From NCBI GenBank assembly GCA_920105625.2, contig OV050030.1, positions 98,520,152 to 98,584,151 of the forward strand: a stretch of 64,000 nt of DNA, read 5' to 3'. Below, piece after piece: positions 3,876-47,061 of this stretch. A model generated the notes under the pieces. The model was given only the letters and a program-made list of their open reading frames with translations. It did no database searches and was not told the DNA's origin. Within the stretch, counting starts at the first letter, position 1; the number at the start of each line of letters is the position of its first letter. The position numbers and the translations under genes were made by a program. This stretch comes from Clusia tigrina. Taxonomy: Eukaryota > Arthropoda > Insecta > Diptera > Clusiidae.

Positions 3876-4046
3876 CATTTCGTCCACACGGCGCTCCTGC
3901 TCTAGCGTGAATTTGGTGGAGTTCAGGTACTCCGCGAGTTTCTTCCGTAGTTCGTCTAGTGTTCCTGAGGCCTCCAACACAAACTCGGTATTAAAATTGA
4001 CCAGCTGCTCCTTTCGAAGTGTATACACCCAAATTGTCTTCGCCAT
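3868..4046 (-). pseudogene. gypsy gag N-terminal fragment (element A)
   Basis: The minus strand begins with ATG at 4046 and encodes about 60 residues with the motif IWVYTLRKEQL, the N-terminus of the gag family seen also in elements 1, C and F. The fragment ends at the Jockey A-tail. The missing remainder of gag, starting at the corresponding residue, is 9.5 kb away at 13534 on the same strand. The ATG context (cataggATG) matches the leader of element C (cgcaggATG), which supports the start. Confidence 0.8.
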
Positions 4047-4129: not shown

Positions 4130-5550
4130 TGTAACGTGACTGCGTGTTAATTATTTAGCTACTCCTTGTGCTTACACGTTTTAGGCTTTTATTTTTTCAG
4201 AGTCTGACGTAATATTTTCTTGTGATATAGTTTCTCTTTTCTCAGAGACCCTGAGGGGTCGTATACAGAAAATATAATAGACCCGCGAGTTAGATTTTTA
4301 TGGTGTTTATTTAAATTCAAAAAATTCTAACAAAACTACTTATTAATCCTATTCCTATACAATAGACTTAACCTTTGTATACTCGTTGTCAGTCTTTCTG
4401 TCTCGGCACCCCAGTAAAAAAACGATTGGAAACCTGATATTCTTACTGAGTTGCTATGTTCTGAATGTGTACGTGACTTAGTAAGAAATGGATTGGAAAC
4501 CTGATGTTCCCACTAAGTCGCGACGGCTCTGTATCGTGTTGGTCTTAGTAAAGTATGTGTCTCAGTAACATAGGTACCTCAGTAAGAAACCGATTGGAAA
4601 CCTGGTGTTCTTATTGAGTTGCTATGTCCTGGTTGTGTACGTGACTTAGTAAGAAATCGATTGGAAACCTGATGTTCATACTAAGTCTCGACAGCTTATG
4701 GTTCTGAAGGCTGTCGTCGGCTCGGAGGTTATTCCCTGAAGAAGAGACTGCTGTTTGGGCCACACGGCTTATATAGCCCAATTTGTCACAGCGGCTGGTG
4801 CATGTTGTTGTTGGCGGGCCACCGTTGTGTGATTTCACTTCCATTGGGCGTCCTCGCTTTCTGCTAATCGCCTCGCTTGTTGTTGTTGTGGCCAGGCTTG
4901 TTGTTATTATAACATTTTGCCTTTGGGCCACCTTTCTGGTTTGCCTGCAGTATTGTCGGCTGCAAGCAGCGCTGTCCGAAATCCTGTAGTGTTGTTGTTG
5001 TTAAATATTATTATATTCAATTCAAATTGGGGTTAGCATATTCGTTCTCATTCCTCCTTCTGCAATGTTCTTGTTGGCCGTTGGCGTGGTGGTCGCTCTG
5101 TCGTTGTCCCTCTTGTGCTTTGCACTCGTTGCTGCGTGTTCATAGTGTAAAATTTACCGAGCGAGCGTACTCGGCAAATTCCACCGATTGAGTGCGTACT
5201 CACCTTCTCTTGTCCTGCATTTATTTGTTGTATTCTTCGTTGCCGTGTTTTTCTCTCTTCGCAAGCGTGACGCTGGTTGGCAAGATCGTTGACTGTGGTG
5301 GTCGCTTTTGTTGTATTTGCTATTATTCCAACTGGTCTAATATGCTGCTGATGATCTGTGCTGATTGGTTACAACGTTTGTAGTTTTTCGTTAAATTTAT
5401 AATGCAGTTGCTTCGGTTTGTATGTGGGCGTTTCCTTGATGCAACTGTTCGGGTCTATTATCCGTGATGTGTGTGTGGATATAGCTGCATAGCGACTCTG
5501 TCACCTGTAGTGTGTGCGAAAATTTCCCTCAGAAGATTTTAGTCTTTACA
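4130..5550 (-). repeat. LTR of gypsy element A (about 1.42 kb)
   Basis: On the minus strand the LTR starts with TGTAAAGACTAAAATCTTC at 5550, directly after the purine tract aaagtggggagggcg that closes pol, and ends at 4130 with acgttaca. Its start resembles the LTR of element C (TGTAAGGAGGAAAATTTCCC at 29849). It holds a tctgtatacgacccc block (about 4258-4270 on the plus strand) like the U5 regions near 49570. It also contains long runs of gttgttgtt and the phrase ggccac..tttgcct, echoed in the isolated LTR at 19434. It serves as 3' LTR for pol on its right and as 5' LTR for the gag fragment on its left. Confidence 0.7.
4411..4700 (+). repeat. Two 168-bp tandem units inside the element A LTR
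   Basis: The core cgattggaaacctg, flanked by agtaagaaa and ttc(t/a)tactgagt, occurs at 4423, 4490 (first base g), 4591 and 4658. The spacing 67, 101, 67 shows a duplicated unit of 168 bp with an internal 67-bp subrepeat. Repeats of this kind inside an LTR could carry enhancer or insulator sites; no function is visible. Confidence 0.8.
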
Positions 5551-5938
5551 CGCCCTCCCCACTTTGCGGGTGAGAGACAGTAATCTTTTCACGGTGGCGC
5601 CACACTCGATACGGTGGTATGCTGAAGCGAACCCTACCGCCACTCCTTGGTACGTGGTTCTTTAATGCTTCTACCAGGCTGAGTGGTAGTTGGTCATCTT
5701 TAGGTCCGTCTAACTCCGCGCTGTTTTCGAACACAATTTTGGCCCACTGTGCCTCTGGTGGGTCTGGAGGGTAGTTATTTGTTGACTTTCGTGCGTTCGG
5801 AGTTTCTTTTTGCCGCTTCCAGACTCCTTCGTGTGAGCTGCCGGAGTCTGACGAGTTCCGTCTTTTGAGTTTGAGCCTCGTCGGGTGCCGTGAGTCTACA
5901 GGTTTGTGTAGGGTCAGTTGTTTAATGATGTGGATCAT
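5551..5938 (-). CDS. C-terminal tail of gypsy pol, in frame with the SENP-like domain (element A)
   Basis: The minus-strand frame is open from 5938 to the stop at 5546-5548. Its last third (AQWAKIVFE, then LPLSLVEALKN and a GRVRF-PPYRV stretch) matches the pol end of element C (WPDITFED, LPPELIQELLE, RIRFYRKPYK near 29660-29810). Its first part continues the last helix of the SENP-like domain without a break, then a basic serine-rich stretch (LKLKRRNSSDSGSS) follows. This shows that the captured domain was joined in frame to the end of the polyprotein. It is followed by the polypurine tract and LTR. Confidence 0.7.
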
Positions 5939-6510
5939 TTCTCGTCTTTTCTGCCTGATAACTTCGTCAGTGTCCCACTAACTCAGGTCGGCCGTTTCCC
6001 ATGCTTTGCTGCCTTTTGGTTGTGTGAAAAAGCTCTCTTCGTTTTGCAAGCAAAAGACACCGCAGTCTGTTTGGTTGTGCTGCTGTGGTGTCATTGTAGA
6101 ATACATTGGCACGTTGCCGACGTCAAATACGGCGGGTGGCGTACTTCTCATTCTGGTGTAAAACTCTTTGCCATGGACCCCTTTGCCATGGAGTGGAAGA
6201 TTAGGATGTTAGTGCCTCGACAACCTGACGCGGCTGCACCCGGGAAACACACTATTAGCAGATACCAATGGTGGTTACGGTTGACAGGGATCAGGATGAA
6301 AACTTTTTGGAAGATATCATCGCCTTTAGTCCATCTTCTGACACGCCGATGTTGCTTAGTGGGAGCGTCGAAGAGTCTCGTCAGGTTGGAGAAGAAATGG
6401 CTACTAAATTAGATTAGCTACTAATTAGACTTAGATTAGATTGATCTGAAGCCACTTCAGATACAAATCTATAAGTATGTCGTTCAATAGTTTCCCTTCT
6501 TGGAGGCGTG
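5939..6510 (-). pseudogene. SENP/Ulp1-like SUMO protease domain, catalytic half, in element A
   Basis: The minus-strand translation gives the hallmarks of a C48 cysteine protease of the SENP6/SENP7/Ulp2 type. ILIPVNRNHHWYLLIVCFPG (near 6245-6305) holds the catalytic histidine before tryptophan. PQQHNQTDCGVFCLQN (near 6041-6090) holds the oxyanion-hole glutamine and catalytic cysteine. The SENP-like end ESFFTQP and VIRQKRRE follows. The usual catalytic aspartate in the ILIFDS-type strand reads histidine here (ILIFHS). There are stops near 6400-6425 and near 5960, and a frameshift near 6180. From about 6110 to 5946 the frame is the one that runs into the pol tail. Such proteases remove SUMO from proteins. 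The assignment rests on motif recognition and has not been tested by alignment. Confidence 0.8.
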
Positions 6511-6548
6511 CGACGCACAGTGGGTTAGAATAGCATGTTTTCTTGGAT
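6511..6548 (+). repeat. Transib left TSD and terminal inverted repeat
   Basis: CGACG (6511-6515) is the target duplication; the inverted repeat starts CACAGTGGGTTAGAATAGC and runs to 6548. It matches the reverse complement of 9655-9687 except at one base (a/c at the twentieth position). Confidence 0.95.
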
Positions 6549-6739
6549 CAAATCAGGGAAGCTATGTTAGGATAATTTTTCTTTATTTTTCAGTTAATAC
6601 CATTAAAATAAGTAAAAAAAAATGTTTTCTAAGTATATTTGAGTATAATTTTATTAAGTAATGCCAAATATCAGTGTAGGTATATAGTGCAAGGAGTACA
6701 GTATGAGAACTTAAACATTACATTTTATACATCTTAAAG

Positions 6740-8918
6740 TTAATCATCCACATCATCATCATTATCATTATCATCATCATCATCATCATTATCGTTATCA
6801 TCATCATCATTATCATCATCATCATTATCATCATTATCATCATCCGCAGCATCAGCAACTTCAACATCACTGAAATAGTTCTTGTTCGGAGCTGCAGGTA
6901 CAATTAAATCAATTGCCTCCTCTGGCAAGCTTTGAACCTTCTTTGCAGGCAATTTTCGCATGCTTGAAATAATTGGGTCAGAGGTTATCAAAAACATATT
7001 AAAAATGTCTTGGTTTGATTTTTCGCGACTGCACTTTCGGGAATGAAACTCCCTATATTTTTTAAAATCTTTATTTCGAGCTTCTTGCGCTTCTTCTGAT
7101 AACTGCCCAATTTTTACCTATTGCATTTGACACAATTTCGGGTCCGTGAATAAAAATCTTGTGCAAAGTGGGAGGCATATTGTACCAAGGATACGTTTCA
7201 ACAAAAAGTTGTCCTGTATTGTGTGCATATATTTTAAATTTTTCATTATTAATTTCATGGCCACTGGATACAGCAATAAGCAACACGTGCATTTTTTTAT
7301 TAAATTAACATCCATTTTTGTTATTTCGGAAGATTTTTCAGCGTTTTGGAAAAAACGTCTTGCCGTATTCCCATCATTCGTGTTTCCAAAACCAGGTTTG
7401 GGTTGGTCAACTATTAATCCCATATTCTCTTTAAATTTATTCTGAATTTCTTTTTTTGTTTCAGCTACTGTTCTTTTTTCAGAATCAGTTCTAGCCTGCC
7501 ACTTTTGTAAAGGTATTTTATTTGCCACGTGCAAAAGACATTCAAAAAATCTAATCCAGCCATGAAGAATGGAAAGGCCAAATTTTAAATTGTCTACATG
7601 TACAGGTCTTTGGATCATGGCTTCTATATTATTAAAATCCTTACTTGTAGCGCCACATAAGTAACACCTTTGTGTTAATGTGGTTTCTGTTAAGGCATTG
7701 CAAACTTTTCCATCTACCATTGCCAAAATTAATTTGTGGGAAACATGTACAACTTTCTCACCAATCGTGACAGTTGAACAGGTTAAATTCTGTATTTCCT
7801 CTTCCACTCTTTTTTTTCACTTCTTCGGTTTCTTTGGCAAATCCAATTTTCAAGGGTCTGCAAAATCTAGTTGAAGACGGCCGTGGATTTTGCCAAATTA
7901 CCTTCTCCTCAAACATAACCCTAAGTGGTACAATTGTGGTTAAAAAAACTGATGAATCACTAGCATCCGATCCATGAAAGGCTTGTTTGTATGAGCTATG
8001 GCCAGAGCTTCCATCAAAGCCCCATTTTGAATATAATACTACATTCGAGTTCGTAATGCCTAATGAGTCAATAACAGTTTCTTGAAGTTCTATTAGTGGC
8101 TCCGCTGTGTGATTAAGAAGACTTTGTAAAGTTACTCCAACGGAGGTCTCGCTTATTTTAAAGCTGGTCGATTCTGGGTAAGTTTTTTGTTTTTCAGTTT
8201 GAATATTGTTGTAGGAGGGAAATATTTGAGGAGCAGCTTGTCTAACAACATTGTATTGATTTCGTGTTAGTTTAGCTTCTACAAAAACAGCCAAAGCTTT
8301 TGTATTCGATATTTTCAAGGTGGGAAGTGATTGTTTAAATTTTTTTCTTAAATTTATTCCCTTGCAACACTTTTCATATATAGCTCGCAACACTTTTGAT
8401 TCCTCGACATAACCTTCGCTTTGTAATTTAACCTGTGAAGCGTAAAGTAACTCTGGCAATGACATGATGTCTCTTACAATCTTTGTTTTTTTATATTTAC
8501 TCCAACCACTGGACTCGGTAAAACTAATTTCTTTTCGACCACATTTTGCAGTCGGGGCAAGAGTAAAACCAATAGAGGATTCCAACCAGATTTTATTTTG
8601 AGTAATAAACCTCATTTCAATTCTATGCGCTCTAGTCCACCTAGATTTAAATTCATAAAAGAAAACATCAATTCTTTTATTTAAATCACACATATTATCC
8701 TCAGAGCAGTTGGTGCGTTTTTTGATTTCTTCAGCTAAAAATGTCATCTTGTCATTCATTGTTTGAGCGCTTGAATTCATCATAATATCAAATAAGCTTC
8801 GACGAGTATAAAAAACAACGTTCGAACTTGTTTCTATAAAAAAAAAAAATAATGCTAATACAAAAAAAAACCTTTCAAAAATCCCTTTTACCCGATTACT
8901 TGAAACTGCACAACACAA
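6740..8918 (-). pseudogene. Transib transposase (RAG1-related)
   Basis: The minus strand encodes a RAG1/Transib-family DDE transposase in four frame pieces. The first (8918-7758) holds SKWGFDGSSGHSSYKQ with the first catalytic aspartate. The second (to 7118) holds MVDGKVCNALT with the second aspartate, the zinc pair CYLCGATSKDFN, the block LHGWIRFFECLLH, and NDGNTARRFFQN. The third (near 7292-7071) has PPTLHKIFIHG. The last (6997-6740) has FLITSDPIISSMRKLP. Frameshifts lie near 7808 (an A-run), near 7270 and near 7095. The true start is unclear; a methionine near 8790 may be more natural than the hydrophobic stretch before it. Family assignment is strong because the TIR and TSD agree. Confidence 0.9.
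6743..6845 (-). repeat. ATC/GAT trinucleotide tract encoding the acidic tail of the Transib transposase
   Basis: About 100 bp of catcat-type repeats is translated on the minus strand as a run of aspartate and asparagine (DDDDNDDDD-like) at the C-terminus of the transposase. Such a tract is prone to length change. Confidence 0.85.
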
Positions 8919-9654
8919 TCACTATTTGTCAAAACAAAGAATATTATTAAAATAAACAAAAACAAAATATTATTGTAACAACGAATATTATTAAAAGAAT
9001 CAAAAATAACAACATTAATATACGGAAAAGAAGAGCACAAATAAATAGAAAAAAGTAACATGAAAAACAACAAAACACAACACACAACAACAGCACCAGT
9101 CGCGAGATCAATGTGACTTTTAGCTAATTTGACTGCTGCAACACTTGTATTAAACAATGCATGGCTTCTAAAAGGCACAAAAGGGCAGCGTAAAATTTTG
9201 CAATATAACACAGATTTATGTCCTCTTTAATATAAACTACAAATTATGACACGAATGTGGACGAATAATAACTATATATCCATTTAAAATATAAAAATAT
9301 AAATTTTTTTGGCATTTTCAATATAAATAACTAAATCTAAATCACTTCCACACACAATTTGATACACAAATGTTAACGAAGTATTTGCAAAATAACCTGA
9401 ACTTGATGGTTCCATTGAAAAATTTTTAACTTTTACAATACTTTTTAAAATAAATAAATTTTTCAACGGGAACGTTTTCACTTTTTTCAGCCTTTTTTGC
9501 ACAAAAATTTCTATGAAGTTTGACTTTGAAGTTTCACTACAAAAACACCAGAGCACTTTTGACATTTATTTTAACGACAAGTGATGTAGAATTTTATATA
9601 CTGTAACCGGGTGCAAAAAATTTTAACGATACTTAAATTTTTTTTTTTAAATTA

Positions 9655-9692
9655 ATCCAAGAAAACAGGCTATTCTAACCCACTGTGCGACG
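9655..9692 (-). repeat. Transib right terminal inverted repeat and TSD
   Basis: The repeat reads, in reverse complement, CACAGTGGGTTAGAATAGC, then CTGTTTTCTTGGAT. It ends at 9687 and is followed by the target duplication CGACG (9688-9692). Confidence 0.95.
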
Positions 9693-9815
9693 TCACTTTT
9701 CTGGATGGTGACTCCCCCTATACCGGGTAGAACCGTTAATAGGACTTCCGCTTGTTGTGCTTCGCCCTCCTCGTCTCCTGAACTGACTTGTAGGGTAATT
9801 AAGTTTCCTAGATTT
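9688..9815 (-). pseudogene. SENP/Ulp1-like domain, N-terminal edge (element A)
   Basis: Just upstream of the Transib insertion the minus-strand frame reads LLTVLPGIGGVTIQKSDV. Across the Transib, after removal of one target duplication, it continues as ARLQEGKLLNDILIDLYLKW. This is the entry strand and first helix (LND-IIDFYLKW type) of SENP6/7-like catalytic domains. Upstream the sequence changes within about 90 bases into gypsy integrase (the block ending NERTTQLKE, equal to NERAERLKE of element C near 29310). The capture boundary therefore lies near 9815, in the integrase C-terminal region. Confidence 0.75.
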
Positions 9816-10712
9816 CTTTTAGCTGAGTCGTTCTCTCATTGGGGCTTTTGTTCGCTTGTCCAGTGCCCATGGTGGTCTCGTCAAACAATGCTTTCGGTAG
9901 CTTTGGCTCTCGTCCTTGTACCAGGTAAGCAAGGCTTTATCCCGTAGTTTCCGAGACGCTGGAGTTTATCGCCAGTGTGAGCTCTGGCAGCAGAATAGTC
10001 CCAAGTTCGCTGTTGTTTGTTGGCGAAGTGCGCTATCATTGTTTTCAGTTTACGATTAGTACGCTCAACTGCGTTCTCTTGAGGCGTATAAGGTGCAGTG
10101 AATTGATGACGCATGCCGTAGTACTGTGTTAATTTGTGAAACGCTTTACTGGTGAACTGGCATCCATTATCTGTAATTAGCACCTTTGGGATCCCAAAAC
10201 AAGCCATAATGCGTTCTCGGAATCCTCGTTGTAGGATTTCAGTGGTGGCTTTCTGAAGTGCTACCATTTCGGCCATTTTGTAAACTTATCATGGAACACA
10301 ACTAACATGGTGTTTCCATGCGTGGAGCGAGGTAATGGTCCCACAAAGTCCGCACAGAGAATGGCCTATGGTTCTTCAGGTATCTGAGTTAACATATTCC
10401 CTGCAGGGAAAGCAGGGATCGGCTGCTCTTGTATTCTTGACACAGTTTACACTGCCTTACGTATAGGCCAACGTCTCGAAAACTCCCTGGCCAATAATAT
10501 CGGTTAGCAACTCGGGCAATAGGTTTCCTAATGCCCAGATGCCCAGCTGTTGGCGCGTTGTGGTTCTCCATTAGGACGCGCTCCCTCAATGGTCGTGGGA
10601 CGCACAGCTTCCACGGGCTGCAATCTTCATCGCCCGTTCGATTTGGAATATGCCGGTAAAGCTGTCCATTCTGCATGGTGTAATCGGCATACTTTATGGG
10701 TTCGGCTAGCAC
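9816..10712 (-). pseudogene. gypsy integrase (element A)
   Basis: The zinc-binding region (10712-10389) has HLGIRKPIARVANRYYWPG and CKLCQEY, the HHCC-type domain. The catalytic core (10276-9881) has VLITDNGCQFTSK with the second aspartate and a PQENAVERTNRKLK stretch with the catalytic glutamate. The first core aspartate falls in the frame-broken stretch 10277-10388. After the core the frame shifts, giving QGREPKLPKALFDE, then NERTTQLKE, after which homology to integrase ends and the SENP-like segment begins. It would insert cDNA into the genome. It is inactive. Confidence 0.85.
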
Positions 10713-10814
10713 TTCTGCTGTTCGCTTTTTCCACCTGCTGCAGTTCGGTTAAGGCTTAGTCTGCACTCTGATGCCACGCGCAGGTTCTACCGGCTGTCTT
10801 GAGAGTGCGTCGGC

Positions 10815-11888
10815 TTACACGTTAAGCTTACCCCGCCTGTATTGTATCTCAAACGAGTGCTGTTGCAGTTCCAGTGCCCACCTGGCTACGCGACCCGATG
10901 GACTCTCAATAGAATTTAACCATTTAAGCGACAGATGGTCTGTAATCACGGTCAACCTGTAGCCCTCGAGATATGGCCGCATCTTCCTTATATCCCACAC
11001 TATGGCTAAACACTCTTTTTCTGTCGGTGAATAATTCTGCTCTGCTCCATTTAAGTGCCGGCTGGCATATGCTATTACTCGCTCTGCTCCGTCGATTTCT
11101 TGGGTAAGTACAGCACCCAAACCATAGTCACTGGCGTCCGTCTGCAATATAAACCGTTGCGTGAAGTCAGGACAGGCGAGAATTGGGTCCTCCGTTAACT
11201 GTTGCTTTAGCTGCTCGAACGCTGTTTGCTGGTCTTTGGTCCACTTGAAGTGCTTACCCTTCTCTAGCAGTGCTGTCAGGAGGTGTGTGGTTTCAGCAAA
11301 ATCAGGTACGAAGCGTCGGTACCAAGATGCAATGCCTAGGCACCGTTGCAGTTCTCGTATATATTTTAGGGGTTTTAATTCCCGGATGGCTGCCACCTTA
11401 TCAGGATCCGTATGAATGCCTTTTTCGCTAACCCTGTTTCCGAGATATGTGATTTCCTTGCGGAAGAGGGCGCACTTTTCTCGATTGATCCTCAAGTTTG
11501 CTTCCCGCAATCTCCTAAAAACTTTAGCAAGGTTCTTCTCGTGCTCCTCCAGTGTTTTCCCCGTGACGATTATGTCATCCAAGTAAGCGAAGGCGCGGGG
11601 CTCCATGTCAGGGCCGATTACGTGATACAGCGCTCGTTGGAAGGTTGCTGGTGCAGAGTGTAGTCCGAAGGGCATGACTTTCCATTGATAGAGTCCTCTT
11701 CCTGATACTGGGAACGCCGTGAATTGTTTACTTCCTTGATCCATGGGTAGTTGCCAATACCCATTTTTTAGGTCCAGGCAGCTAATGTATTTTGCTTCTC
11801 GTAAGCGGTCCAGGATGTGGTGTATGCGTGGTAGGGGGTACGCATCGGGAATAGATTTCGCATTAAGTTGCCGGTAGTCGATACACAA
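10815..11888 (-). CDS. gypsy reverse transcriptase - RNase H, long open frame (element A)
   Basis: An uninterrupted frame of 357 codons carries the RT palm (YRQLNAKSIPDAYPLPRIHH, LDLKNGYWQLPM), the catalytic YLDD (FAYLDDIIVTG), thumb and connection, and the RNase H domain (FILQTDASDYGLGAVLTQEI, then ITDHLSLKWLNS). It ends in the linker QYRRGKLNV. This is the best-preserved enzyme of element A; the flanking parts are frameshifted, so it is not a functional polyprotein as it stands. Confidence 0.88.
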   Translation of the reverse strand: MCIDYRQLNAKSIPDAYPLPRIHHILDRLREAKYISCLDLKNGYWQLPMDQGSKQFTAFPVSGRGLYQWKVMPFGLHSAPATFQRALYHVIGPDMEPRAFAYLDDIIVTGKTLEEHEKNLAKVFRRLREANLRINREKCALFRKEITYLGNRVSEKGIHTDPDKVAAIRELKPLKYIRELQRCLGIASWYRRFVPDFAETTHLLTALLEKGKHFKWTKDQQTAFEQLKQQLTEDPILACPDFTQRFILQTDASDYGLGAVLTQEIDGAERVIAYASRHLNGAEQNYSPTEKECLAIVWDIRKMRPYLEGYRLTVITDHLSLKWLNSIESPSGRVARWALELQQHSFEIQYRRGKLNV

Positions 11889-12518
11889 CCTCCACCTCCC
11901 ATCCTTCTTTCATACGAGCACGATTGGGACACTGTGAGGGCTGTGGGATGGCTCTATGCAGCCTTTCGCCAACAGATCATTTATTTCTGCATTTATTACC
12001 TCTCGCTGCGCTGGGTTTCTGGGATAATACCTCAGTTTAATCGGTCTATCGTCGTGGATCACGATCTTGTGGCTGGTGATGTGGGACATTCCTGGTTCTT
12101 CATTGAACTTGGTCAGTTCTGTAGCCAGAAATTCTTCGAGCCTTGCCTTCTCCGTGAAGGCCTCCACTCAGATCGTCGTACATAATGTAGAATCTCGGGG
12201 TTGTACGACACCGGTATGGGATCCTAGTATATTGTCATAAAATCCAGTCCCAAGAGTAGGTCCTCTGTGGAATCGGGCATCAGTAGGAGATCCAGCTCGC
12301 AGTTTTGTCACTCGGAGTGCTTCTGTGATTTCTCGCGTGTGCAAGTCTGCCATACGTGCGCGTATGTGTGTGGGAGTTACGCCACCTGTAATTGCACGTA
12401 ACTGGCGACTAAGGCGTTCGCTGAACAAGCTCCGCGTAGCTCCGGTATCGATGGTGGCTGTGATTTGGATGGTGCCGATGCTGGCTGCGGCACATATACG
12501 CTGCCCATCGCAACGCAA
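11889..12518 (-). pseudogene. gypsy protease and RT N-terminus (element A)
   Basis: The piece 12518-12168 has the protease active site TIDTGATRSLFSERL. Its second half is frameshifted near 12300 (the DxLLGLD-type strand is partly lost). The piece 12167-11910 carries the RT entry with DDRPIKLRYYPRNPAQ and KGCIEPSHSPHSVPIVLV. The short stretch before the RT core frame (about 11900) is again shifted. The order protease-RT matches elements 1, C and F. Confidence 0.8.
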
Positions 12519-12539
12519 CGCACTTAATGCTTTTGAGGA

Positions 12540-13534
12540 CAGTGGCGGTAGGCTGCGCCCTGGCTCGCTCTTGACGGCAGCCCCGTTCGTTTCCCCCCTG
12601 TGTCCGACAGCATTCTATGGTCCGAATTCCACGCTTCCCGCAGTCCCAGCAGAATAGGACTTGCGCATTGCGACAGAAGCGTGCCACGTGCCCACTTTCC
12701 CTACACCGTCGGCAGGCGGTCCGTACATCTATTGCTGCCTCAGCTTTAGTGCTATTGACTGGAAGGATTTGTCGGTTTCTTGTCTCCCGGGGCTTAGTAT
12801 GGTCGACTCTGGGTGATGCCGTGGGTGTCCTGGATGTATCTTTGTTGTTCCGTATGCCCGCTATTTCTATCCACTCACCAAGTGTCGTGAAATCTTTCCG
12901 ACGTACGTACCATTGGTACTCCTCCAACAGTGGAGGCTGTTCCCAAATATACGCTCCAGTTTTTGTTCCTCTGTATGCCCGACATGTCGCATGAGGTTCT
13001 AGAGTTCCACAATATATTGTTTAAACGCTTCTCTAGGGCGTTGTAAGCGTTTCCTGATCTCATCCTCGAATTTCTCCCAGTAACGTGCTGGCAAAAAGAA
13101 CTTCAGAAAGTCTTTTTTGAACGCATCCCACTCAGTCCAACTGCAATTGTTGTTTCGGAACCAGAGTAACGCGCGGTCTTTCAATAGTTCTGGCATCGTC
13201 CGTGGGAGTAGATTCGTATTTATCCCATAGACATCTGACAACTCCTCTATGCGTTCAATAAACGCCAGTGGGTCTCGTTCCCCATCGAACTTCACTGACC
13301 ACTTCCTTACATGATCAATCACGGTGGAGTACGTGGTAGTTCCACTTCTGGGGAACTCGGGTACAGCTGTGCGCAGGGCGTCACGTGATGTCCCGGCTTG
13401 CTCGTCTCTCGACGGTAGTAGCAATTCTCGGCTCGCACTCAGGTACTCATCGGAGACTCGTGGTCGTTCCAAACTGTATGGAATTTGGGGTTGCCTGACC
13501 AGTGTAGGTAACAAACTCTTCATGAAGCGAGCCT
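12540..13534 (-). pseudogene. gypsy gag C-terminal part (element A)
   Basis: The frame from 13534 to 12999 has KWSVKFDGERDPLAFIERIE and the capsid-like FLKFFLPARYWEKFEDEIRK. A frame change near 13000-12930 is followed by EEYQWYVRRKDFTTLGE and by a zinc knuckle with canonical C-x2-C-x4-H-x4-C spacing (CRRCRESGHVARFC), then CWDCGKRG. The N-terminal 60 residues are missing here: gag is cut at gcgagcct (13527-13534) by the 5' end of the Jockey, and the missing residues are at 3868-4046. Confidence 0.85.
13527..13534 (+). repeat. Target-site duplication of the Jockey insertion (5' side)
   Basis: gcgagcct precedes the first base of the Jockey 5' part and is identical to 3868-3875, which follows the Jockey A-tail. 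If one copy of the 8-mer and the LINE are removed, the gag frame runs on without a shift. Confidence 0.75.
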
Positions 13535-26729: not shown

Positions 26730-27687
26730 ATGGAAAAAACGAGTTGGGCATACAGCCTACGCAAGGATCAGCTATTGGTGTATTGTATCGAGTTTGGTGT
26801 AGAGGCCACTGGCACAGTGGAAGAACTACGAAAGAGACTAGCCGAATTCACCAATGGTATGGAATTAAATCTACAGCAGGAATATCGATTGGCAGAGTTA
26901 CAGGCCCGGCATGCGAGAAGTTTTTCACACGGACCTAGTACCCACGGGAGGACTAACCCAGCACAGTTGAGCCGGTAAGCCCCAAAGTACCGACAGTAAT
27001 TAACAGAGACGCACTATCCCTGTCTGGAGACGACCAGGCGGTATCGTCGCGTACTACGATTCACCAGTAGTACCCGAAACAACGCGAAGCGGAAGTGATT
27101 TTTACTCGGCTGTTATTGACCATGTCAAAAAGTGATCAATCAAATACGATGGAGGGCGTGATCCCCTGGCTTTCGTCGAGCGAGTGGAGGAGCTTTCGGA
27201 GGTATACGGTCTAAACAAACATATGTTACCCCGAACAATGCCCGAAGTCCTTAAGGGGAGAGGTTTATTGTGATTTCGCAATAACAATCGAGCGTGGATA
27301 GGCTGGCCTTCGTTCAAGAAGGACTTTCTTAAATTTTTCTTGCCTACCAGATATTTAGAAAAGCTGGAGGACGAGATCAGGCAGCGGCAACAGCAACCAC
27401 GGGAAAGATTCAAGCAGTATGTGGTTGAACTACAAAATCTCATGCGGCAGGCTGGTTACTCGGAAGAAAACAAGCTTGAGCGCATTTTCCGGAATAGCCT
27501 CGAAGAGTACCAGTGGTACGTGCGAAGAAAAGACTTTTCGACACTGGACGAGTTGGTGGAAATGGCGGAAGACCTAGAGGGTATACATGGTGATCGCAAA
27601 ACTCCACGAGCAACACCACCGAGACCACCACAACGCCCAAGTCCTCTTCTGTTCGGAGTGCGGCAAGAAGGGAACCAGGACTATTGA
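26730..27687 (+). pseudogene. gypsy gag (element C)
   Basis: The N-terminus (SWAYSLRKDQL) opens at 26730 and stops at 26978. From about 27114 the capsid part continues, with KYDGGRDPLAFVERVEELSE, FLKFFLPTRYLEKLEDEIRQ and EEYQWYVRRKDFSTLDELVE, interrupted by TGA codons near 27137 and 27271. The zinc-knuckle region is shortened: VLFCSECGKKGTRTIECC appears in another frame, and the first knuckle is gone. The leader and ATG context match the start of element A. Confidence 0.85.
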
Positions 27688-28530
27688 ATGCTGTTGGACA
27701 TCAGGGGGAAACGAGAGGGGCTGCCGCCAGCAACGAGGCATGGAGCAGCCCAGCAAAAACAAGCCTCACACACAGTAAGTACGCTTAGTTGCGATGGGCA
27801 ACGCATCTGTGCCGCCGTCACCATTGGCACAGATGAAATAACGGCCACGCTAGACACAGGCGCCACCAGGAGTTTTATCAACGAACGACTCGTCCGCCAA
27901 TTAACTGCTACCACCGGTAGAGTGACCTCTACAAACACTAGAGCACTTATGGCGGATGGGCGAGCAAGAGAAATCACTCAAGCGTTTGTGGTGTGTGTTA
28001 GGCTGGGAGGAAAGATATGCCAGCTGGAACTACTCATCATGCCCGACTCTATTGAAGACTTACTGCTCGGCCTGGATTTCAAACAAGGCATGTTCCTGAA
28101 ATGTGGAGACCACGAGATCAACCTAGGACCCCAGACGCATAGCGTGCAAACCCGAGTCACCGCATCGTGCACGACCATACAACAAGAAGTTACTATGGAC
28201 GAAGCAAAGATAGACATGTTCCAGTCCACAAAGTTGACAAAATTTACGGGCGAGCCAAGTGTATACAACCTGACGAACCAGAAGATCGTGACGCGCGATG
28301 ACCGGCCTATCAAACTTAATGTATTAGCGGATACATTGTCAAGACAACCTATCGAAGCTGCACGCACTGTCACATTGCAGGACCAACCAGAGCAGCACTG
28401 CATGTGGTGGCTTAAAAGAAAAGGCGAAGTACTCGCCGATCCGGTTAAATTCGCCGACTACACTATAGAAAACGGGCAACTGTACCGCCATATACCTAGC
28501 CGCACGAGAGACGAAGACTGCACACAATGA
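27688..28530 (+). CDS. Protease-integrase in-frame fusion left by an internal deletion (element C)
   Basis: One open frame of 280 codons starts in the gag-protease linker, contains TLDTGATRSFINERL and the second protease half LLLGLDFKQGM, and reaches the RT entry DDRPIKL. At about 28318 it jumps, in frame, to the RNase H end NVLADTLSRQP and the integrase N-terminal region (WWLKRKGEVLADP, GQLYRHIPSRT). About 1.1 kb present in elements A and F (the whole RT and most of RNase H) is missing. The joint falls in aaact, found in both parental positions. It ends at a TGA where F has TGG. Confidence 0.88.
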   Translation: MLLDIRGKREGLPPATRHGAAQQKQASHTVSTLSCDGQRICAAVTIGTDEITATLDTGATRSFINERLVRQLTATTGRVTSTNTRALMADGRAREITQAFVVCVRLGGKICQLELLIMPDSIEDLLLGLDFKQGMFLKCGDHEINLGPQTHSVQTRVTASCTTIQQEVTMDEAKIDMFQSTKLTKFTGEPSVYNLTNQKIVTRDDRPIKLNVLADTLSRQPIEAARTVTLQDQPEQHCMWWLKRKGEVLADPVKFADYTIENGQLYRHIPSRTRDEDCTQ

Positions 28531-29815
28531 AAACTATGCGTTCCTAGGCCTTTTAGGGAACGCATTCTACAGGAAAGCCATGACGCACCAACTGCAGGAC
28601 ATCTGGGCATCCGCAAAAGGATAGCACGAATTGCTAACCGGTACTACTGGCCTGGATTATTCAGAGACACCAGCCGGTACGTACGTCAATGTAAGCTGTG
28701 CCAATAATACAAACCTAGCCAGCAGCAACCGGCTGGAGAAATGCTGACGCAGATACCCCAGGAACCGTGGGCTATATTATGTGCTGACTTTGATGGACCC
28801 TTACCTCGCTCAAAGCACGGAAACACCATGATGGTATTCCATGACAAATTTTCCAAATGGACAGAAGTTGCTCCCCTCCAAAAGACCACCAATACGCTAC
28901 AACGGGCCTTTCGGGAGCGCATTTCAGCCCGTTTTTGAGTTCCAAAAGTCTTAGTGAGAGACAACGGTTCGCAATTCACGAGCAAGTCATTCAAACGTTT
29001 CGTCAAGAACTACTGTATCAAACATCAGTTCACCGCACCTTAAACGCCACAAGAAAATGCTGCTGAGCGTGCCAACCGCACTATAAAGACAATGGTCGCC
29101 CAATTTGCAAGAAACGAGCAACAAAAGTGGGATGAGCTATTGCCTGAATTAACCCTCGCTATCAACACCAGCATGTCAGAAACTACGGGCTATAGCCCCG
29201 CATTATTGATACAAGGACGGGAACCACGCCGACCAAGAGCCGTGTACGATGAAATTACCCCTGGAACGGGACAGCAGAAGCAAATGCCAAACGAGAGAGC
29301 CGAACGACTTAAAGAAGCATATAAGTTGGTTACAAGAAATCTGGAGCGAGCTACCCAAGACCAACGACGATTTTACAGCCTGCGACGTAGACCCTGGAAG
29401 CCCGAAGTTGGACAGTGGGTGTTAGCTAAACAGCACCATTTATCCACTTCGCCGCTAAATTAGCCCCTAGCTACGACGGGCCATACCAAATAGACACTTT
29501 TATCTCACCAGTCATAGTCAAGATGAAACGAGAAGGGGATAAGGAGACGAGGACAGCCCATATCACCGAATTAAACCATTCTACGCGGCTGACCACAAAG
29601 AGAGGTACCAAGAAACCAAAGAAAACTCCGATATCATCAAAGGAAATTCACTGGCCCGACATCACGTTCGAAGACATCGGAACTAACCGGACCAAAAGCA
29701 GTCGGCCTACCACCAGAACTAATCCAAGAGCTGCTCGAGACGGCAGCCACAAAGCAGGCGCGAATCCGGTTCTACCGGAAGCCATACAAAATCACCCTCT
29801 GCTAGCGTAGGATAA
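28531..29815 (+). pseudogene. gypsy integrase and pol tail (element C)
   Basis: The frame holds HLGIRKRIARIANRYYWPG and QCKLCQ (zinc domain), WAILCADFDGPLPRSKHG, VLVRDNGSQFTS and ENAAERANRTIK (DDE core). Stops lie at 28529 (TGA), near 28706, 28937 and 29041. From 29092 to 29463 the C-terminal part is open (ELTLAINTSMSETTGYSP, RPWKPEVGQWVLAK), then a frameshift leads to AAKLAPSYDGPYQ and HITELNHSTRL. The tail ends WPDITFED and, in another frame, LPPELIQELLE. This intact-length C-terminus is the reference for seeing the replaced region in element A. Confidence 0.85.
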
Positions 29816-29848
29816 TTATCGTCTATCATCCGCGAAGTGGGAAGGAAA

Positions 29849-31016
29849 TGTAAGGAGGAAAATTTCCCCATAAATTTTGCTCCAACATAATTCTTCTGCC
29901 ACACCATCAATTTTTCAAACCAAGCCACGAACCGCAGTCGATTGTTCTAGAAGAATGTAATTTATGCACTATTAGAAGCAATCGGCAAAACCCACCCCTA
30001 ATAAGCAGTATGATCGACGCGTCAGACATCTTCAACAACAACAACAGAGCGTGCAACAAGAAACAATGCCACGTGCTGGACAACAAGCCGAATTCAGCAG
30101 CGATAATGGCGGTTACGTTTGAATACAATTGATAAAACAACAGAACTTTCTGGAAGCTTTGCGACTGAAGCTGGGCTATAAAAGCAGCAGCAACAGAGGA
30201 GCTCACTCTTTTTTTTCTCCAGCAAGCAACGAAGACGCATCGACGAACAGAGCTCTCTCTCTTCATCAGCCATCGACGACTACGCATCGACAGTATCTCT
30301 TTTCCTGATCAGCCATCGACCACGACGCACCGACAGCAGCTCTTTCCATCATCAGCCATCGACGACTACGCATCGACATAGCTCTTTACATCATCAGCCA
30401 TCGTCGACTACACATCGACATAGCTCTTTCTTCTCCAGCAAGCAACGACGACGCATCGACATATCTCTTTCTTCTCCAGCAAGCAACGAAGACGCATCGA
30501 CATAGCTCTTTCTTCTCCAGCAAGCAACGAAAACGCATCGACGGAGAGAGCTCTTTACTTCATCAGCCATCGACGACTACGCATCGACGGTAGCTCTTTT
30601 CCTGAACAGCCATTGACGACGACGCATCGACGCATAGTTTTTTATCAGCCATCGAGGAAGAGATACAGACGCACAGATCTTTACGAAGAAAACATCGACG
30701 CACCTACACTTTTGACTCCAGCATCTGACGCAACTGTACTGAGAATATTCTGCATTAGTGGATTATATGAATTGTAATCGGTACTCCACTAATTCCCAGA
30801 ATCACCAACGTGTACCGAGACCTTGATACTGGACCAACTGTAGTAGTCTAGCTTAATAACTAAGCTTTATCTATTAACTCAAAGATTTAATTTAATTAAT
30901 TAAATAAAGCATTGAATATAACCAAGCTACGCAAACTCAAAGTTATTTTTCTGTAAACGACTCCTGGGAATCCGGCGAGCATTACTCAGGCGAAAGAAGG
31001 AAAAGGGTTCGTTACA
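29849..31016 (+). repeat. LTR of gypsy element C (1168 bp)
   Basis: It starts TGTAAGGAGGAAAATTTCCCC after the purine-rich gaagtgggaaggaaa and ends ggttcgttaca at 31016. The part 30220-30700 is made of imperfect tandem units of 45-60 bp with catcagccatcgacgac and gcatcgaca followed by ctctttc. U5 holds tctgtaaacgactcctgggaatccggcgagc, shared with the isolated LTR and with element F. Confidence 0.85.
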
Positions 31017-31068: not shown

Positions 31069-31795
31069 TCCAGCAATGTGCGTACTTTGTAAAGGAGCAC
31101 ACGCTGCAGGTAGTGCAAGGTGCCCACAGTCCCAGGAGGCAGTAAATAAGAAACGAGCATGAGAATTATTCAGCTCAACCTCAATCACTGTGCGGCCGCT
31201 CAAGACCTCTTACGGAAAACCATGCAGGAGCACAGCGTAGATATTCCGCTATTATCAGAGCCATACGAAAGCATCGACGAATATTCCTGGATGTCTATTT
31301 TCTCGAACAATTCGGCGATATGGACAATGGTCAATTCAAATCCGCACAGTAAAATTACGTTAGCAGAACGTGGTTTCACCTGGGTCAAAGCTAGAGGCAT
31401 CTATCTTTTTAGTTGCTACGCTCCAATCAGTATGAAAGCGGAGGGGTACGAAAGAATGTTGGCAGCACTAGTAGCAGAAGCGCGGGGCAAACACCCACTC
31501 CTGATTGCTGGTGACTTTAACGCGTGGTCCACTACTTGCGGGAGCACGCGCTCCAACAGACGTGGCACAGCGCTGCTGGAGAGCATGGCTCTGCTTGATC
31601 TAGAGCTGCTCAATGTACCTGGCCAATGCTCTTTCGAAAATGGAAGAAACAGCTCCATCGTGGACCTAATGGACCCTGGAGAAATAGTAGTTTGGTTCGG
31701 GCTAAAGTCCCACTCTACGGCTTCGGCCATTCTCTTTAGATGTTTCACATCCTCAGCACAAATAAAAAAAATATATAGATATATACGAGTATATA
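31069..31795 (+). mobile_element. R1-like LINE fragment with ORF1/ORF2 overlap
   Basis: It carries the last codons of ORF1 with a zinc-knuckle remnant (CVLCKGAHAAGSARCP) ending at TGA 31160-31162, which overlaps the ORF2 start ATG 31159-31161 as ATGA. After the endonuclease part, coding similarity fades near 31690. The stretch to 31795 has a small A-run and (TA)n. The RT is absent, so the copy is truncated on both sides or internally deleted. Confidence 0.75.
31159..31690 (+). pseudogene. R1-like ORF2 endonuclease fragment
   Basis: It begins MRIIQLNLNHCAAAQDLL, the usual R1-clade endonuclease start. It continues with VDIPLLSEPYE (catalytic glutamate region), SCYAPISM and LLIAGDFNAWSTTCGS, the GDFNAW motif, then ends in SIVDL. 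The SDH motif and the RT are missing. Overlap of its ATG with the ORF1 stop suggests coupled termination-reinitiation in the parent. Confidence 0.85.
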
Positions 31796-32129
31796 AGTTA
31801 AGAACAAACACATTGAAATATTCAGGTATCCAACTCATTAGCAAACGTGTACCAAAATCTGCTGACGCTATGTCTACGGTACTTCCGTGGGAGCAGTGAT
31901 AAAAACACCTTCCACGCTTGCATCAAATAACCAACATAAGCAGAGCACCACAACAGTGATAACGGCAATAAAAATAACTAATACAAACACAGCTTGAGGT
32001 TAGCATTAAGGTATTAATAAAATGTTAAGTTAGTCTAAGTTTTGGATTCAATTAAATAAAACGAAAGACATCAGAGTTCTCTCTGATGTGTTTTTTAAAA
32101 AAACTAAATAAATACAATTTAGTTTAACT
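31796..32129 (+). repeat. 5' LTR of errantivirus D
   Basis: Starts AGTTAAGAACA and ends TTTAGTTTAACT (short inverted repeat AGTTAA/TTAACT). It is preceded by TATA. AATAAAA near 32055 may be the polyadenylation signal. Confidence 0.95.
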
Positions 32130-32147
32130 GGCGCCCGAGCAGGGACC
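32129..32147 (+). promoter_or_regulatory. Primer binding site of errantivirus D
   Basis: tggcgcccgagcagggacc overlaps the last LTR base. The match to a lysine-tRNA 3' end type is the same as in element 1. Confidence 0.85.
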
Positions 32148-32618
32148 AGCGAAGTCACTAGTAAAATCGTGAATAAAAAAGTGAGAAAAATAATAAGAAA
32201 AAAGTATCGCTAAGTTTACGTGTTACAAAAAAAAAACGAGAAACCAAACAGTATCGTTGGTGACAAGTGCTAGAGAAAGCTGAAAAAAAGTAGCAGGAAA
32301 GAGGCCCCCAAGTAGACGTATCATCGTAGGAACAGGAGCTTTTGACAAGCAGCCGCCTGCCCAAAATATTCAACAAAACAAAGCACCGCTGGGAAAAACC
32401 ATGAAGAATACTTTAAGCATATTTCTACTGTATTTGTATGTAAGTCATAAACATTTAAAAAAAAAAAAAAAAAAAAAATACAAAGGAAAAAGTTAAAGTA
32501 AACGAAAAAGAGTAAAGAAATAAATAATCAAAAGATAAGTTCAAGTTAAATTTTTTCTAAATAAAAAAAAAGTGAAAGTAAATAAAAAATAATAAGAAAA
32601 CTAAGAAATAATTACAAG

Positions 32619-32664
<46 letters not shown>

Positions 32665-32741
32665 CTATTATAAATAACGTTTGGTGAAGGAATCAAAACA
32701 TTTCTTTAATTTTTTTTTATTTTTATCCATTACTTTTAAAC
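32148..32741 (+). other. Untranslated leader of errantivirus D
   Basis: A 600-base leader with long A-runs (32459-32480, 32628-32656) and no supported coding frame. It would hold the splice donor for env and packaging sequences, neither of which can be fixed by eye. Confidence 0.6.
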
Positions 32742-34150
32742 ATGTCGACTCCAGAAGAACAACTTAGTGAAAAACTAGCACAATTAAGGGTTACTAATAG
32801 TCTGATCAATAATTCTAACCAACACCCACCTAGTACAAGTCATAATCCTCAACCACTAATACTGACAGAAGCACTAACCAGACAGATTACGGAACTGATT
32901 ACATCGACAGTACAGAACCTCCATAACCCGTTTGTCGAAAACGACGAAAGAGACTATACGGTCCAATTTAATTCGACAAATTTGGATGAATTGGATAGGA
33001 TCCCAGACATTGTAAAGTGCTTACGCGAATTTTCTGGGCAACCAGGAGAATTTAACTCCTGGCGTAAAACCGTGGACAGAATATTTACTGCATACGAACA
33101 TGTTAAACGAACACCAAAATATTACGCAATATTACACACCGTCAGACACAAAATCATAGGAGAGGCAGATACTGCCTTAGAATCATACAGAACTCCGCTA
33201 GATTGGTCTAAAATAAAAAAATGCCTAATGATGCATTATTCGGACAAGCGCGACATCGGCACGCTTGAATATGAAATGACCACACTAACGCAACGAAACA
33301 GTACTATAACAGAATTCTACCAGCGAATTTACCAATACCTATCGCTGATATTAGACAAAATCGCTTGCTTAGAATTAAGCGAAGAGTCACTTCAAACAAT
33401 GACTAATGCATATAGGGAAAAAGCATTAGACACTTTTATTCGGGGACTCAACGGTGAACTTCCTAAACTTTTAAGCGTTCGAGAACCAACGACACTGCCA
33501 CAGGCCCTACATCTGTGTCAAAAATTAGATAACATGGCATATAGAATGAACTCCATGCAGAGGCCAAATATTCCCAGAAAACCCGATTATCCATTGCCGC
33601 CTTTGCGACCACCACGTCAAAACCATCCTCCCATGCAACCTATTAGAAATAGATTTTTCCCAGAACTAACACATTTGCCTCAGTTCAGATACGATAATAG
33701 TCCACATAATAGATTCCAGCCCAATAATAACAATTACCAACATAATAACTCATACGGGTTTCAACCAAAACCCCATTTCGGTCATTCAGGATTCAATAAC
33801 CGACCATACCTTCCACCTAAACCTCCCGTACTATGGAAGTTGACCCTTCGGTACACTCCAGGCAGGTAAACTACCAAAACCGACCACAGAACAACTATAA
33901 TAGACCTCAAATTGCCTTCAATCAATACCAAAACCCAGCACAAAAACGACAATTGCCACCTTTTTCTCAGCAAAACCATCAACCCAACAAAATTCAGCGA
34001 ACATTCTTTACTCACACAGAAGATCCGTACTATGAGTCTGAGGGATTTTATTCCGAAGAACGTCTGGAAGATAACTTCGAAGCAAATCACCACCCGAAGA
34101 CAGAACAAGAAGACATAAAACAAACCGATGACGTTCATTTTTTAGACTAA
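32742..34150 (+). pseudogene. gag of errantivirus D, one frameshift
   Basis: ATG 32742 opens 375 codons of errantivirus-type gag: capsid-like helices with LREFSGQPGEFNSWRKTVDR and LDTFIRGLNGELPKLLSVRE, then an asparagine/proline-rich basic tail without zinc knuckles, as usual for this group. Near 33828 a one-base change shifts the frame. The remaining about 105 codons run to 34150 with SQQNHQPNKIQRTFFTH. The frame of protease lies -1 relative to this end, consistent with ribosomal frameshifting. Confidence 0.88.
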
Positions 34151-37100: not shown

Positions 37101-37274
37101 AAACACACAATCAAGGATTATATACCAGGACAAGTAATCTACGTAAAGCAAAACAAAAGATTAGGAACAAAACTGTCAGCAAAATTCAAAGAAGAAATAG
37201 TAAAAGAAAATAGAAATACTACAGTAGTTACAGAATCAGGAAAAATAGTTCACAAAAGCAACATACGCAACTAA
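34151..37274 (+). pseudogene. pol of errantivirus D (protease, RT, RNase H, integrase)
   Basis: The protease has LLDTGSNKNYIQPN (near 34210-34250) and is frameshifted near 34325. From there one frame runs to 37274 with a single TAA at 35281, where neighbours suggest a glutamate codon. RT shows WIVVKKGDASGEKKYRMVID, LKSGFHQIPL and the YIDD box (near 35150). RNase H shows ELTTDASNQALGAVLSQ and TDHQPL. Integrase has CVTCKQQKYERHPNQP, LHIDIYSTDKKL, VIIDNEKSL and NGQVERFHS for the zinc and D,D,E residues. From 35403 on, 623 codons are intact. Confidence 0.92.
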
Positions 37275-37304
37275 GTTCTCTTATAAACAATTATAATTTT
37301 CCAG

Positions 37305-38850: not shown

Positions 38851-38853
38851 ACT

Positions 38854-38865
38854 TAAAGGGGGAGA
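38854..38865 (+). promoter_or_regulatory. Polypurine tract of errantivirus D
   Basis: aaagggggaga directly before the 3' LTR; it primes plus-strand synthesis. Confidence 0.9.
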
Positions 38866-45437: not shown

Positions 45438-45445
45438 TAAATTGT

Positions 45446-47038: not shown

Positions 47039-47061
47039 ATTGTGGGAAATTGTGTATATTT

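What the first reader, a model, noticed from the sequence alone, without database searches (positions are those of the whole stretch)
5939..9815. SENP/Ulp1-like SUMO protease domain fused in frame into the pol of a gypsy element
Seen: on the minus strand of element A, between the integrase core and the C-terminal pol tail, lie GGVTIQKSDV, LNDILIDLYLKW, ILIPVNRNHHWYLLIVCFPG and QTDCGVFCLQN. Known: this order with histidine-tryptophan and Q-x-DCGVF is the signature of C48 (SENP6/7, Ulp2) proteases. Inferred: the domain replaced about 280 bp of the integrase C-terminal region present in element C (29310-29590), and its last helix continues in frame into the pol tail. Elements C and F lack it where comparable. 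A retroelement that acquires a deSUMOylating activity could affect SUMO-dependent silencing (the piRNA and heterochromatin pathways use SUMO) or integration. I know of Ulp1 capture by plant Mutator elements but not by insect gypsy.
Basis: partly seen in the sequence, partly recalled or inferred. Interest (0 to 1): 0.88.

Follow-up and report, generated by a model that had tools for sequence, protein, structure and literature searches.

The report
Retrotransposons that carry a SUMO protease
A group of gypsy retrotransposons in this genome carries, as a separate third gene, an enzyme resembling the host proteins that remove the SUMO tag, a tag that helps keep transposons silent; the copy in this window is a broken relic of that group.

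Summary
The C48 (SENP/Ulp) domain is real, but it is not a fusion into pol. The window's own 1.21-Gb genome gave 150 scored PF02902 matches over the cut-off (of 343 candidates). In 38 of 40 loci that I picked from that list, the domain lies just downstream of this gypsy clade's integrase. In unbroken copies it is the core of a separate third ORF (386-428 aa) between pol and the 3' LTR, where env sits in retroviruses. Closest solved relative: SENP7 (E 1e-38). H-D-Q-C is kept in 16 of 18 aligned ORF3 frames. In nine between-family pairs synonymous sites are saturated while nonsynonymous change in the core is 0.17-0.40. A CCGTT...TATAAA module precedes ORF3 in 30 of 40 loci. Element A aligns with its nearest fetched relative L028 except for 569 missing bp (pol end to ORF3 start), so the apparent fusion is a deletion scar. 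I infer a deSUMOylase that counters SUMO-dependent silencing or protects element proteins; activity is untested.

The parts
12409..13523 (-). Element A gag, N-terminus missing: capsid-type gag 13002-13523 and zinc knuckle 12412-12927
   Evidence: Pfam Retrotrans_gag E 6.7e-6; zf-CCHC weak, E 0.027 and below its cut-off
12168..12518 (-). Element A aspartic protease remnant
   Evidence: Asp_protease_2 E 0.0012, below its cut-off
10815..11909 (-). Element A reverse transcriptase and RNase H, frame still open
   Evidence: RVT_1 E 9e-34, RT_RNaseH E 6e-40; open frame
9809..10748 (-). Element A integrase: H2C2 finger 10392-10712, core 9998-10276, continuing in another frame to 9811
   Evidence: Integrase_H2C2 E 2.6e-19; rve E 8.6e-10; 86.6% identical to L028 4737-5693 over A 10800-9809
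9808..9809 (-). Deletion scar: 569 bp present in L028 (5694-6262) are missing here: end of pol, intergenic promoter-like module, first 21 residues of ORF3
   Evidence: L028 sequence
9688..9808 (-). ORF3 (SENP-like), N-terminal piece, with GGVTIQKSDV
   Evidence: 87.6% identical to L028 6263-6383
6516..9687 (-). Later Transib-type insertion with CACAGTG ends and CGACG target duplication (6511-6515 and 9688-9692)
   Evidence: inverted repeat I1; ends printed; ORF 7761-8918 matches 6pqn at 7.1e-31
5547..6515 (-). ORF3 (SENP-like), rest: LND helix 6446-6511, His-Trp 6151-6306, Gln/Cys 5981-6148, last helix, linker and C-terminal tail to 5549; broken by frameshifts and a TAG at 5978-5980; the catalytic Asp position reads His
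   Evidence: A 6515-4738 aligns to L028 6379-8241 at 75.3%, LTR included
4265..5550 (-). LTR downstream of ORF3 (end approximate); the ORF3 stop overlaps its first bases
   Evidence: A 5550-4738 matches both LTRs of L028; A 4240-4202 matches the leader just after the L028 5' LTR
3880..4046 (-). Start of a second gag after the LTR, same orientation: head-to-tail neighbour, cut off by another element
   Evidence: sequence; reading by eye against the gag start of the element at 524-880
27065..29850 (+). Element C, relic of the same clade: gag, protease, integrase and pol end, ORF3 tail 29674-29844; most of RT and the C48 core are missing

Best explanation
A multi-family clade of Ty3/Gypsy retrotransposons carries a third gene, between pol and the 3' LTR, that encodes a SENP6/7-type SUMO protease: a short N-terminal region, the C48 core, a Ser/Lys-rich linker with an invariant Trp-Lys-Arg, and a conserved C-terminal tail. 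Element A is a decayed copy that lost 569 bp relative to its nearest fetched relative and received a Transib-type insertion. Shown by sequence: family membership, position, multiplicity, conserved catalytic residues, long-term purifying selection, presence in young copies, and a conserved promoter-like module upstream. Inferred: ORF3 is transcribed from its own internal promoter, enters the nucleus and removes SUMO chains from host silencing factors and/or from element proteins, which favours transcription or integration of the element. My own split: counter-silencing about 0.45, protection of element proteins about 0.35.
For:: 150 scored PF02902 matches, over the cut-off, of 343 candidates (one, L001, is a SENP1-type host gene); by my count of the printed rows 125 of 150 have no stop inside; clade integrase upstream in 18 of 20 and 20 of 20 loci that I picked; separate ORF3; true LTR pairs 99.92% (L023), 99.90% (L022) and 98.4% (L028) identical; in other loci the repeat runs into a head-to-tail neighbour; in the L014 family RT 98.3-99.2% and ORF3 core 98.2-99.6% identical between loci. 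PF02902 E 4.7e-24 to 1.1e-29 in 5 of 5 ORF3s scanned; the one pol scanned (L023) has PR, RT, RNase H, H2C2 and rve, plus an SH3_Tf2-1 match below its cut-off; sentrin-specific protease 7 at E 1.1e-38 and 2.4e-37, ahead of Ulp2 (8e-20, 5e-17) and SENP2 (5e-17, 2.7e-20). H-D-Q-C in 16 of 18; core pS 0.75-0.98 against pN 0.17-0.40 between families. CCGTT-TATAAA module before ORF3 in 17 of 20 and 13 of 20 loci; no match elsewhere in the 20 long loci. Background: SUMOylated Panx is needed for silencing in fly ovarian cells (PMC13195609, passages); in yeast, ubc9 and siz1 siz2 mutants derepress Ty1 (PMC8585004, abstract and section 8).
Against: No activity, expression or localisation data. In the same yeast paper, loss of the deSUMOylase Ulp1 itself also derepresses Ty1 (read there as decreased SUMOylation of host factors), so the direction of effect of a protease is not given by that work. 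The ~58-residue SENP7 insertion between the two halves of the core is absent. The family L021-L025 lacks the TATA module, so an internal promoter is not universal. Two of 18 ORF3 frames have lost a catalytic residue (L009 Cys, L020 Asp); L011 and L026 were left out of the 18 because their ORF3 start is broken. Nine close pairs give whole-ORF dN/dS of 0.35 to 1.8, no proof of constraint. The pairs were chosen by hand. Only one host genome was available. Matches were ranked by score, so intact copies are over-represented.
Confidence: 0.7

Rival explanations
1. One reading: the C48 domain was captured into pol in frame and replaced the integrase C-terminal region.
For: In this copy C48 follows the integrase core directly and its last part is continuous in frame with a tail shared with element C.
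Against: In L014, L016-L019, L022 and L023 pol ends with its own stop about 205-220 bp upstream of the ORF3 start; the L023 pol has an SH3-like end, below cut-off; A lacks 569 bp of L028 exactly there, with a frame mismatch.
Confidence: 0.02
2. ORF3 is a deSUMOylase but its targets are the element's own Gag or integrase (protection from SUMO-targeted ubiquitin ligation, or timing of nuclear steps), not host silencing factors.
For: SENP6/7-type enzymes act on SUMO chains (recalled); position next to the integrase gene; in Ginger1 transposons the domain is fused to a gypsy-type integrase and an effect on DNA repair during or after transposition was suggested (PMC2836005, passages).
Against: ORF3 is a separate gene with its own promoter-like module, not fused to integrase; no test of Gag or integrase SUMOylation.
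Confidence: 0.35
3. ORF3 has changed specificity (ubiquitin, NEDD8 or a protein substrate) and is not a SUMO protease.
For: Relatives of the C48 type have other substrates: the ChlaDub2 deubiquitinase/deneddylase appears among the weaker matches of the host SENP1-type gene.
Against: The matches of ORF3 at E 0.01 or better are SENP1, 2, 3, 5, 7, Ulp1, Ulp2 and, for L028, an Ulp1-like SUMO protease; catalytic residues are conserved.
Confidence: 0.1
4. ORF3 is a passenger gene without function for the element.
For: Old copies such as A and C lost parts of it; by my count 25 of 150 matches have stops inside.
Against: Saturated synonymous and limited nonsynonymous change between families; conserved catalytic residues; present in young copies.
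Confidence: 0.04

Closest known systems
Ginger1 DNA transposons (PMC2836005, passages read)
   Same: Gypsy-type integrase associated with an Ulp1 (C48) or OTU protease domain.
   Different: Ginger1 has terminal inverted repeats, encodes a single transposase and has the protease fused at its C-terminus; here there are gag, PR, RT, RNase H and LTRs, and C48 is a separate ORF with its own upstream module.
NeSL and Utopia non-LTR retrotransposons (PMC4640811, passages read)
   Same: Retrotransposons encoding an Ulp1-like cysteine protease (NeSL of nematodes, Utopia-1_TSP).
   Different: Non-LTR elements with the protease at the N-terminus; here LTR elements and a separate third ORF.
Mutator-type and Crypton F/S transposons with C48 (PMC2836005 and PMC3212892, passages read)
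   Same: C48 peptidases carried by transposons; in some CryptonS elements as an additional protein.
   Different: DNA transposons.
Insect errantiviruses (gypsy type with env; recalled)
   Same: Gag, pol and a third ORF between pol and the 3' LTR.
   Different: The third ORF here is a SENP-like protease; Pfam finds only PF02902 in the 5 ORF3s scanned.
SENP6/SENP7/Ulp2 SUMO proteases (solved structures 3eay, 7r2e, 5lnb)
   Same: C48 core with His, Asp, Gln, Cys; SENP7 is the top match of both ORF3s searched.
   Different: The ~58-residue SENP7 insertion is missing; own N- and C-terminal regions, including the Trp-Lys-Arg tail.

Membership tests
Peptidase C48 (Ulp1/SENP) | Pfam PF02902 over curated cut-off | tested here: met
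   ORF3 of L014, L017, L023, L027, L028: 85.9-104.2 bits against 20.7; in window A only piecewise, 22.3 and 20.6 bits
Peptidase C48 (Ulp1/SENP) | Catalytic His-Asp-Cys and oxyanion Gln | tested here: met
   16 of 18 aligned ORF3 frames (L011 and L026 not aligned); in window A His, Gln and Cys are present, the Asp position reads His. Roles of the residues recalled
SENP6/7/Ulp2 branch | Closer to SENP7/Ulp2 than to SENP1/2/3/5 | tested here: inconclusive
   SENP7 clearly first for both ORF3s; Ulp2 second for L023 (74.6 bits, SENP2 65.3) but behind SENP2 for L028. By score only, no tree
SENP6/7/Ulp2 branch | Long insertion between the two halves of the core, as in SENP7 | tested here: not met
   SENP7 143-202 corresponds to ORF3 154-159 in L028
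SENP6/7/Ulp2 branch | Cleaves SUMO chains | not testable with these tools
   needs a biochemical assay
Ty3/Gypsy LTR retrotransposon | gag, PR, RT, RNase H, integrase in this order between LTRs | tested here: met
   L023: Pfam domains, LTRs 452-1651 and 7495-8694
Ginger1 DNA transposon | no reverse transcriptase, terminal inverted repeats, protease fused to integrase | tested here: not met
   RT and RNase H present, direct LTRs, separate ORF3
Errantivirus / endogenous retrovirus | third ORF encodes an envelope glycoprotein | tested here: not met
   ORF3 matches PF02902 only, in 5 of 5 scanned

The most novel reading that the evidence does not exclude
A whole clade of LTR retrotransposons carries, under its own internal promoter, a deSUMOylase that strips SUMO from the host's transposon-silencing machinery: a transposon-encoded counter-defence against SUMO-dependent heterochromatin, exchangeable between families by recombination (mosaic L013) and changing about three times faster than RT at nonsynonymous sites.
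Probability: 0.35. Interest if true: 0.93.

Novelty: new variant of a known kind. Interest (0 to 1): 0.82.

Why it matters
SUMO takes part in transposon silencing in flies and yeast, and viruses attack SUMO pathways (recalled), but my ten library searches listed no LTR retrotransposon with a SUMO protease gene. If ORF3 is an active deSUMOylase, it would be a direct, testable case of a retrotransposon meeting silencing with an enzyme, and a reason why 'sentrin-specific protease' gene counts in insect genomes could be inflated by transposons.

Tried and rejected
Rejected: in-frame fusion to pol; retroposed host gene at one locus (many copies; no run of six or more A or T in the 396 bp and 211 bp examined around the element-A pieces); origin from the host SENP1-type gene (L001 matches SENP1 at 2.7e-60 and SENP7 only at 2.5e-9, the reverse of ORF3); capture by a second, distant gypsy clade suggested by L009 (its 38% RT lies in a different nested LTR element, LTRs 286-583 and 5109-5407). 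The linker shuffle test was weak (185 of 2000 shuffles open; its printed translation was in a wrong frame) and is not used. One search printed nothing (a slip in the script) and was redone.

Led nowhere: viral contigs and genome-contig scans (pattern matches, none confirmed); the N-terminal ORF3 piece of A and the SH3/GPY-F-like piece of element C against solved structures and, with the tail of A, against Pfam: no match, so the GPY/F label for element C is by eye. Rfam: no match in the window. Literature: ten searches of the open PMC library; I saw listings only, cut short in 13, 44, 45 and 98, with terms such as gypsy, Ulp1, C48, SUMO protease, sentrin-specific protease, integrase, third ORF; none listed showed by title or abstract start an LTR retrotransposon with a SENP-like ORF. 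Passages only were read of PMC6413925 (a whitefly SENP1 gene as piRNA target), PMC6338049 (accessory domains; 'Ulp' and 'OTU' absent) and PMC13269885. Repbase was not available. The host's own SENP6/7-type gene and the number of clade copies without ORF3 could not be determined.
Full report
Coordinates. For L009, L014, L016, L022, L024, L025 and L027 positions are given in the reverse complement of the stored locus, so that the element reads left to right; the other loci are as stored.

What was claimed.

The domain is real. Two pieces match Pfam PF02902 independently and in profile order, one just over and one just under the cut-off. Three pieces each pick sentrin-specific protease 7 as best solved structure, at residues 43-61, 122-143 and 254-317 of chain 3eay (weaker matches are unrelated viral proteins, E 0.035 and above). 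Element A carries gag, protease, RT, RNase H, H2C2 and integrase core on the same strand. The domain is cut by a Transib-type insertion at 6516-9687 with CACAGTG ends and a CGACG duplication, whose ORF matches transposase 6pqn at 7.1e-31. The copy is decayed: several frames, a TAG at 5978-5980 and a His where the catalytic Asp should be.

It is a gene of a whole clade. The window's own genome (1.214 Gb, 666 contigs) gave 150 scored PF02902 matches, over the cut-off, of 343 candidates; by my count 125 of the 150 printed rows have no stop inside. One of the 150, L001, is a SENP1-type host gene. I fetched 20 loci of about 10 kb, chosen to cover the classes, and 20 upstream stretches of 1.7 kb, spread over the remaining rows. 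The clade's integrase lies upstream in 18 of 20 (exceptions L009 and L020) and in 20 of 20.

Anatomy of the unbroken copies. L023 has LTRs 452-1651 and 7495-8694 (99.92% identical), a gag frame of 427 codons, a pol frame of 1083 and an ORF3 frame of 444, 428 aa from the start used. Pfam finds gag and zinc knuckle; PR, RT, RNase H, H2C2 and rve in pol, with an SH3_Tf2-1 match at its end that is below its cut-off; and only PF02902 in ORF3. In L014, L016-L019, L022 and L023 pol stops about 205-220 bp before the ORF3 start; the relative frame differs between copies (L014, L017, L022, L023 same; L016 different), so read-through is unlikely to be the mode of expression. True LTR pairs are 99.92% (L023), 99.90% (L022) and 98.4% (L028) identical; in several other loci the long repeat runs into a head-to-tail neighbour and does not date an insertion.

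What A and C really are. Against L028, A 10800-9809 matches L028 4737-5693 (86.6%) and A 9808-9688 matches L028 6263-6383 (87.6%). The missing 569 bp hold the end of pol with, by eye, a GPY/F-like motif, the intergenic module and the first 21 residues of ORF3 (L028 sequence). The 'pol tail' is the ORF3 C-terminus. Element C kept the pol end and the ORF3 tail and lost most of RT and the C48 core. The fusion is therefore a scar.

What ORF3 is. Full ORF3s match SENP7 at 1.1e-38 (L023) and 2.4e-37 (L028), ahead of Ulp2 and SENP2. The SENP7 insertion of about 58 residues is absent. His, Asp, Gln and Cys are kept in 16 of 18 aligned frames (L009 has Arg for Cys, L020 Tyr for Asp; L011 and L026 were not aligned because their start is broken). 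Six representatives share 53 invariant columns, among them Trp-Lys-Arg in the C-terminal part. In nine hand-picked between-family pairs core pS is 0.75-0.98 and pN 0.17-0.40, that is, purifying selection over a time long enough to saturate synonymous sites. Nonsynonymous change in the core is 3.0-3.8 times that of RT in the six pairs of four loci compared. Nine close pairs give whole-ORF dN/dS of 0.35 to 1.8 and prove nothing either way.

Upstream module. In six of seven family representatives CCGTT starts 11-26 bp before a GTATAAA that precedes the ORF3 start. The pattern CCGTT-(4-30)-TATAAA occurs upstream of ORF3 in 13 of 20 long loci (14 matches, L020 holding two ORF3 copies) and nowhere else in them on either strand, and in 17 of 20 short stretches. 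TATAWAW occurs in 18 of 480 overlapping gag-pol windows of the same size. The five loci of the family L021-L025 have CCGTTAC but no TATA; L009 and L011 also lack the module. A GTRAGT splice-donor-like site follows the TATA in several families and is unexplained. An internal promoter is my inference.

Exchange. L013 is 94.7-98.3% like L017 from 2.1 to 4.5 kb, and from 5.1 kb on, ORF3 included, 91-99% like L014 to 7.5 kb; its leader (1.5-2.1 kb) is also nearer L014. Its RT is 97.5% identical to L017 and its ORF3 core 94% to L014. In this one mosaic ORF3 and pol have different origins.

How it may work. In fly ovarian somatic cells SUMOylated Panx is required for piRNA-guided transcriptional silencing (PMC13195609, passages); a role of Su(var)2-10 is recalled (paper not held). 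In yeast, ubc9 and siz1 siz2 mutants raise Ty1 RNA, but so does loss of Ulp1 itself; the authors read all three as decreased SUMOylation of host factors (PMC8585004, abstract and section 8). An element-encoded deSUMOylase could therefore loosen silencing. Alternatively it protects Gag or integrase. Neither is tested.

Known neighbours. Ulp1 domains occur in Ginger1 (fused to a gypsy-type integrase), Mutator-type elements, NeSL/Utopia LINEs and some Cryptons (PMC2836005, PMC4640811, PMC3212892; passages). Ten library searches listed no LTR retrotransposon with such an ORF (calls in Tried and rejected). I file this as a new variant of a known kind.

Limits. One genome, no host name, no expression data, score-ranked and hand-picked sampling, no tree, no count of clade copies without ORF3, and no host SENP6/7-type gene for comparison.

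Noticed in passing
G000 C1:377923434-377939050, C1:360515360-360530957, C4:120392143-120419566, C1:61837601-61851804; L019, L024, L025, L026: C48 copies at regular spacings (about 7.54, 7.56, 6.7 and 6.1-7.6 kb): head-to-tail tandem arrays of these elements; long repeats 97.7-100% identical in the four loci. In the window, the LTR of A is also followed by a second gag start. Recombination between LTRs or an assembly effect; not resolved.
   Followed up: partly
L013: Mosaic element: central gag-pol part like the L017 family, ORF3, neighbouring pol end and leader like the L014 family, switching near 5.1 kb.
   Followed up: yes
L016, L017, L027, L028, L010, between the TATA and the ORF3 start: GTRAGT splice-donor-like site after the TATA in several families, seen by eye; no obvious acceptor before the start codon.
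   Followed up: partly
window 31795-39199: Another gypsy-type element with LTRs 99.4% identical (335 bp), long gag and pol frames and two further frames after pol that by eye could be an env region; PBS-like site at 32129.
   Followed up: no
window 42594-49554: Further LTR element, minus strand, LTR-like repeats 97.3% identical.
   Followed up: no
L001 1501-2031: SENP1-type host gene, open over the matched core in genomic DNA (SENP1 E 2.7e-60).
   Followed up: partly
L020: Two ORF3 copies 6036 bp apart with no gag, RT or integrase match of the clade in the 10-kb stretch: perhaps a deletion derivative that keeps ORF3 and its upstream module.
   Followed up: no
window 6516-9687: The terminal sequence CACAGTG equals the V(D)J heptamer as I recall it.
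   Followed up: no
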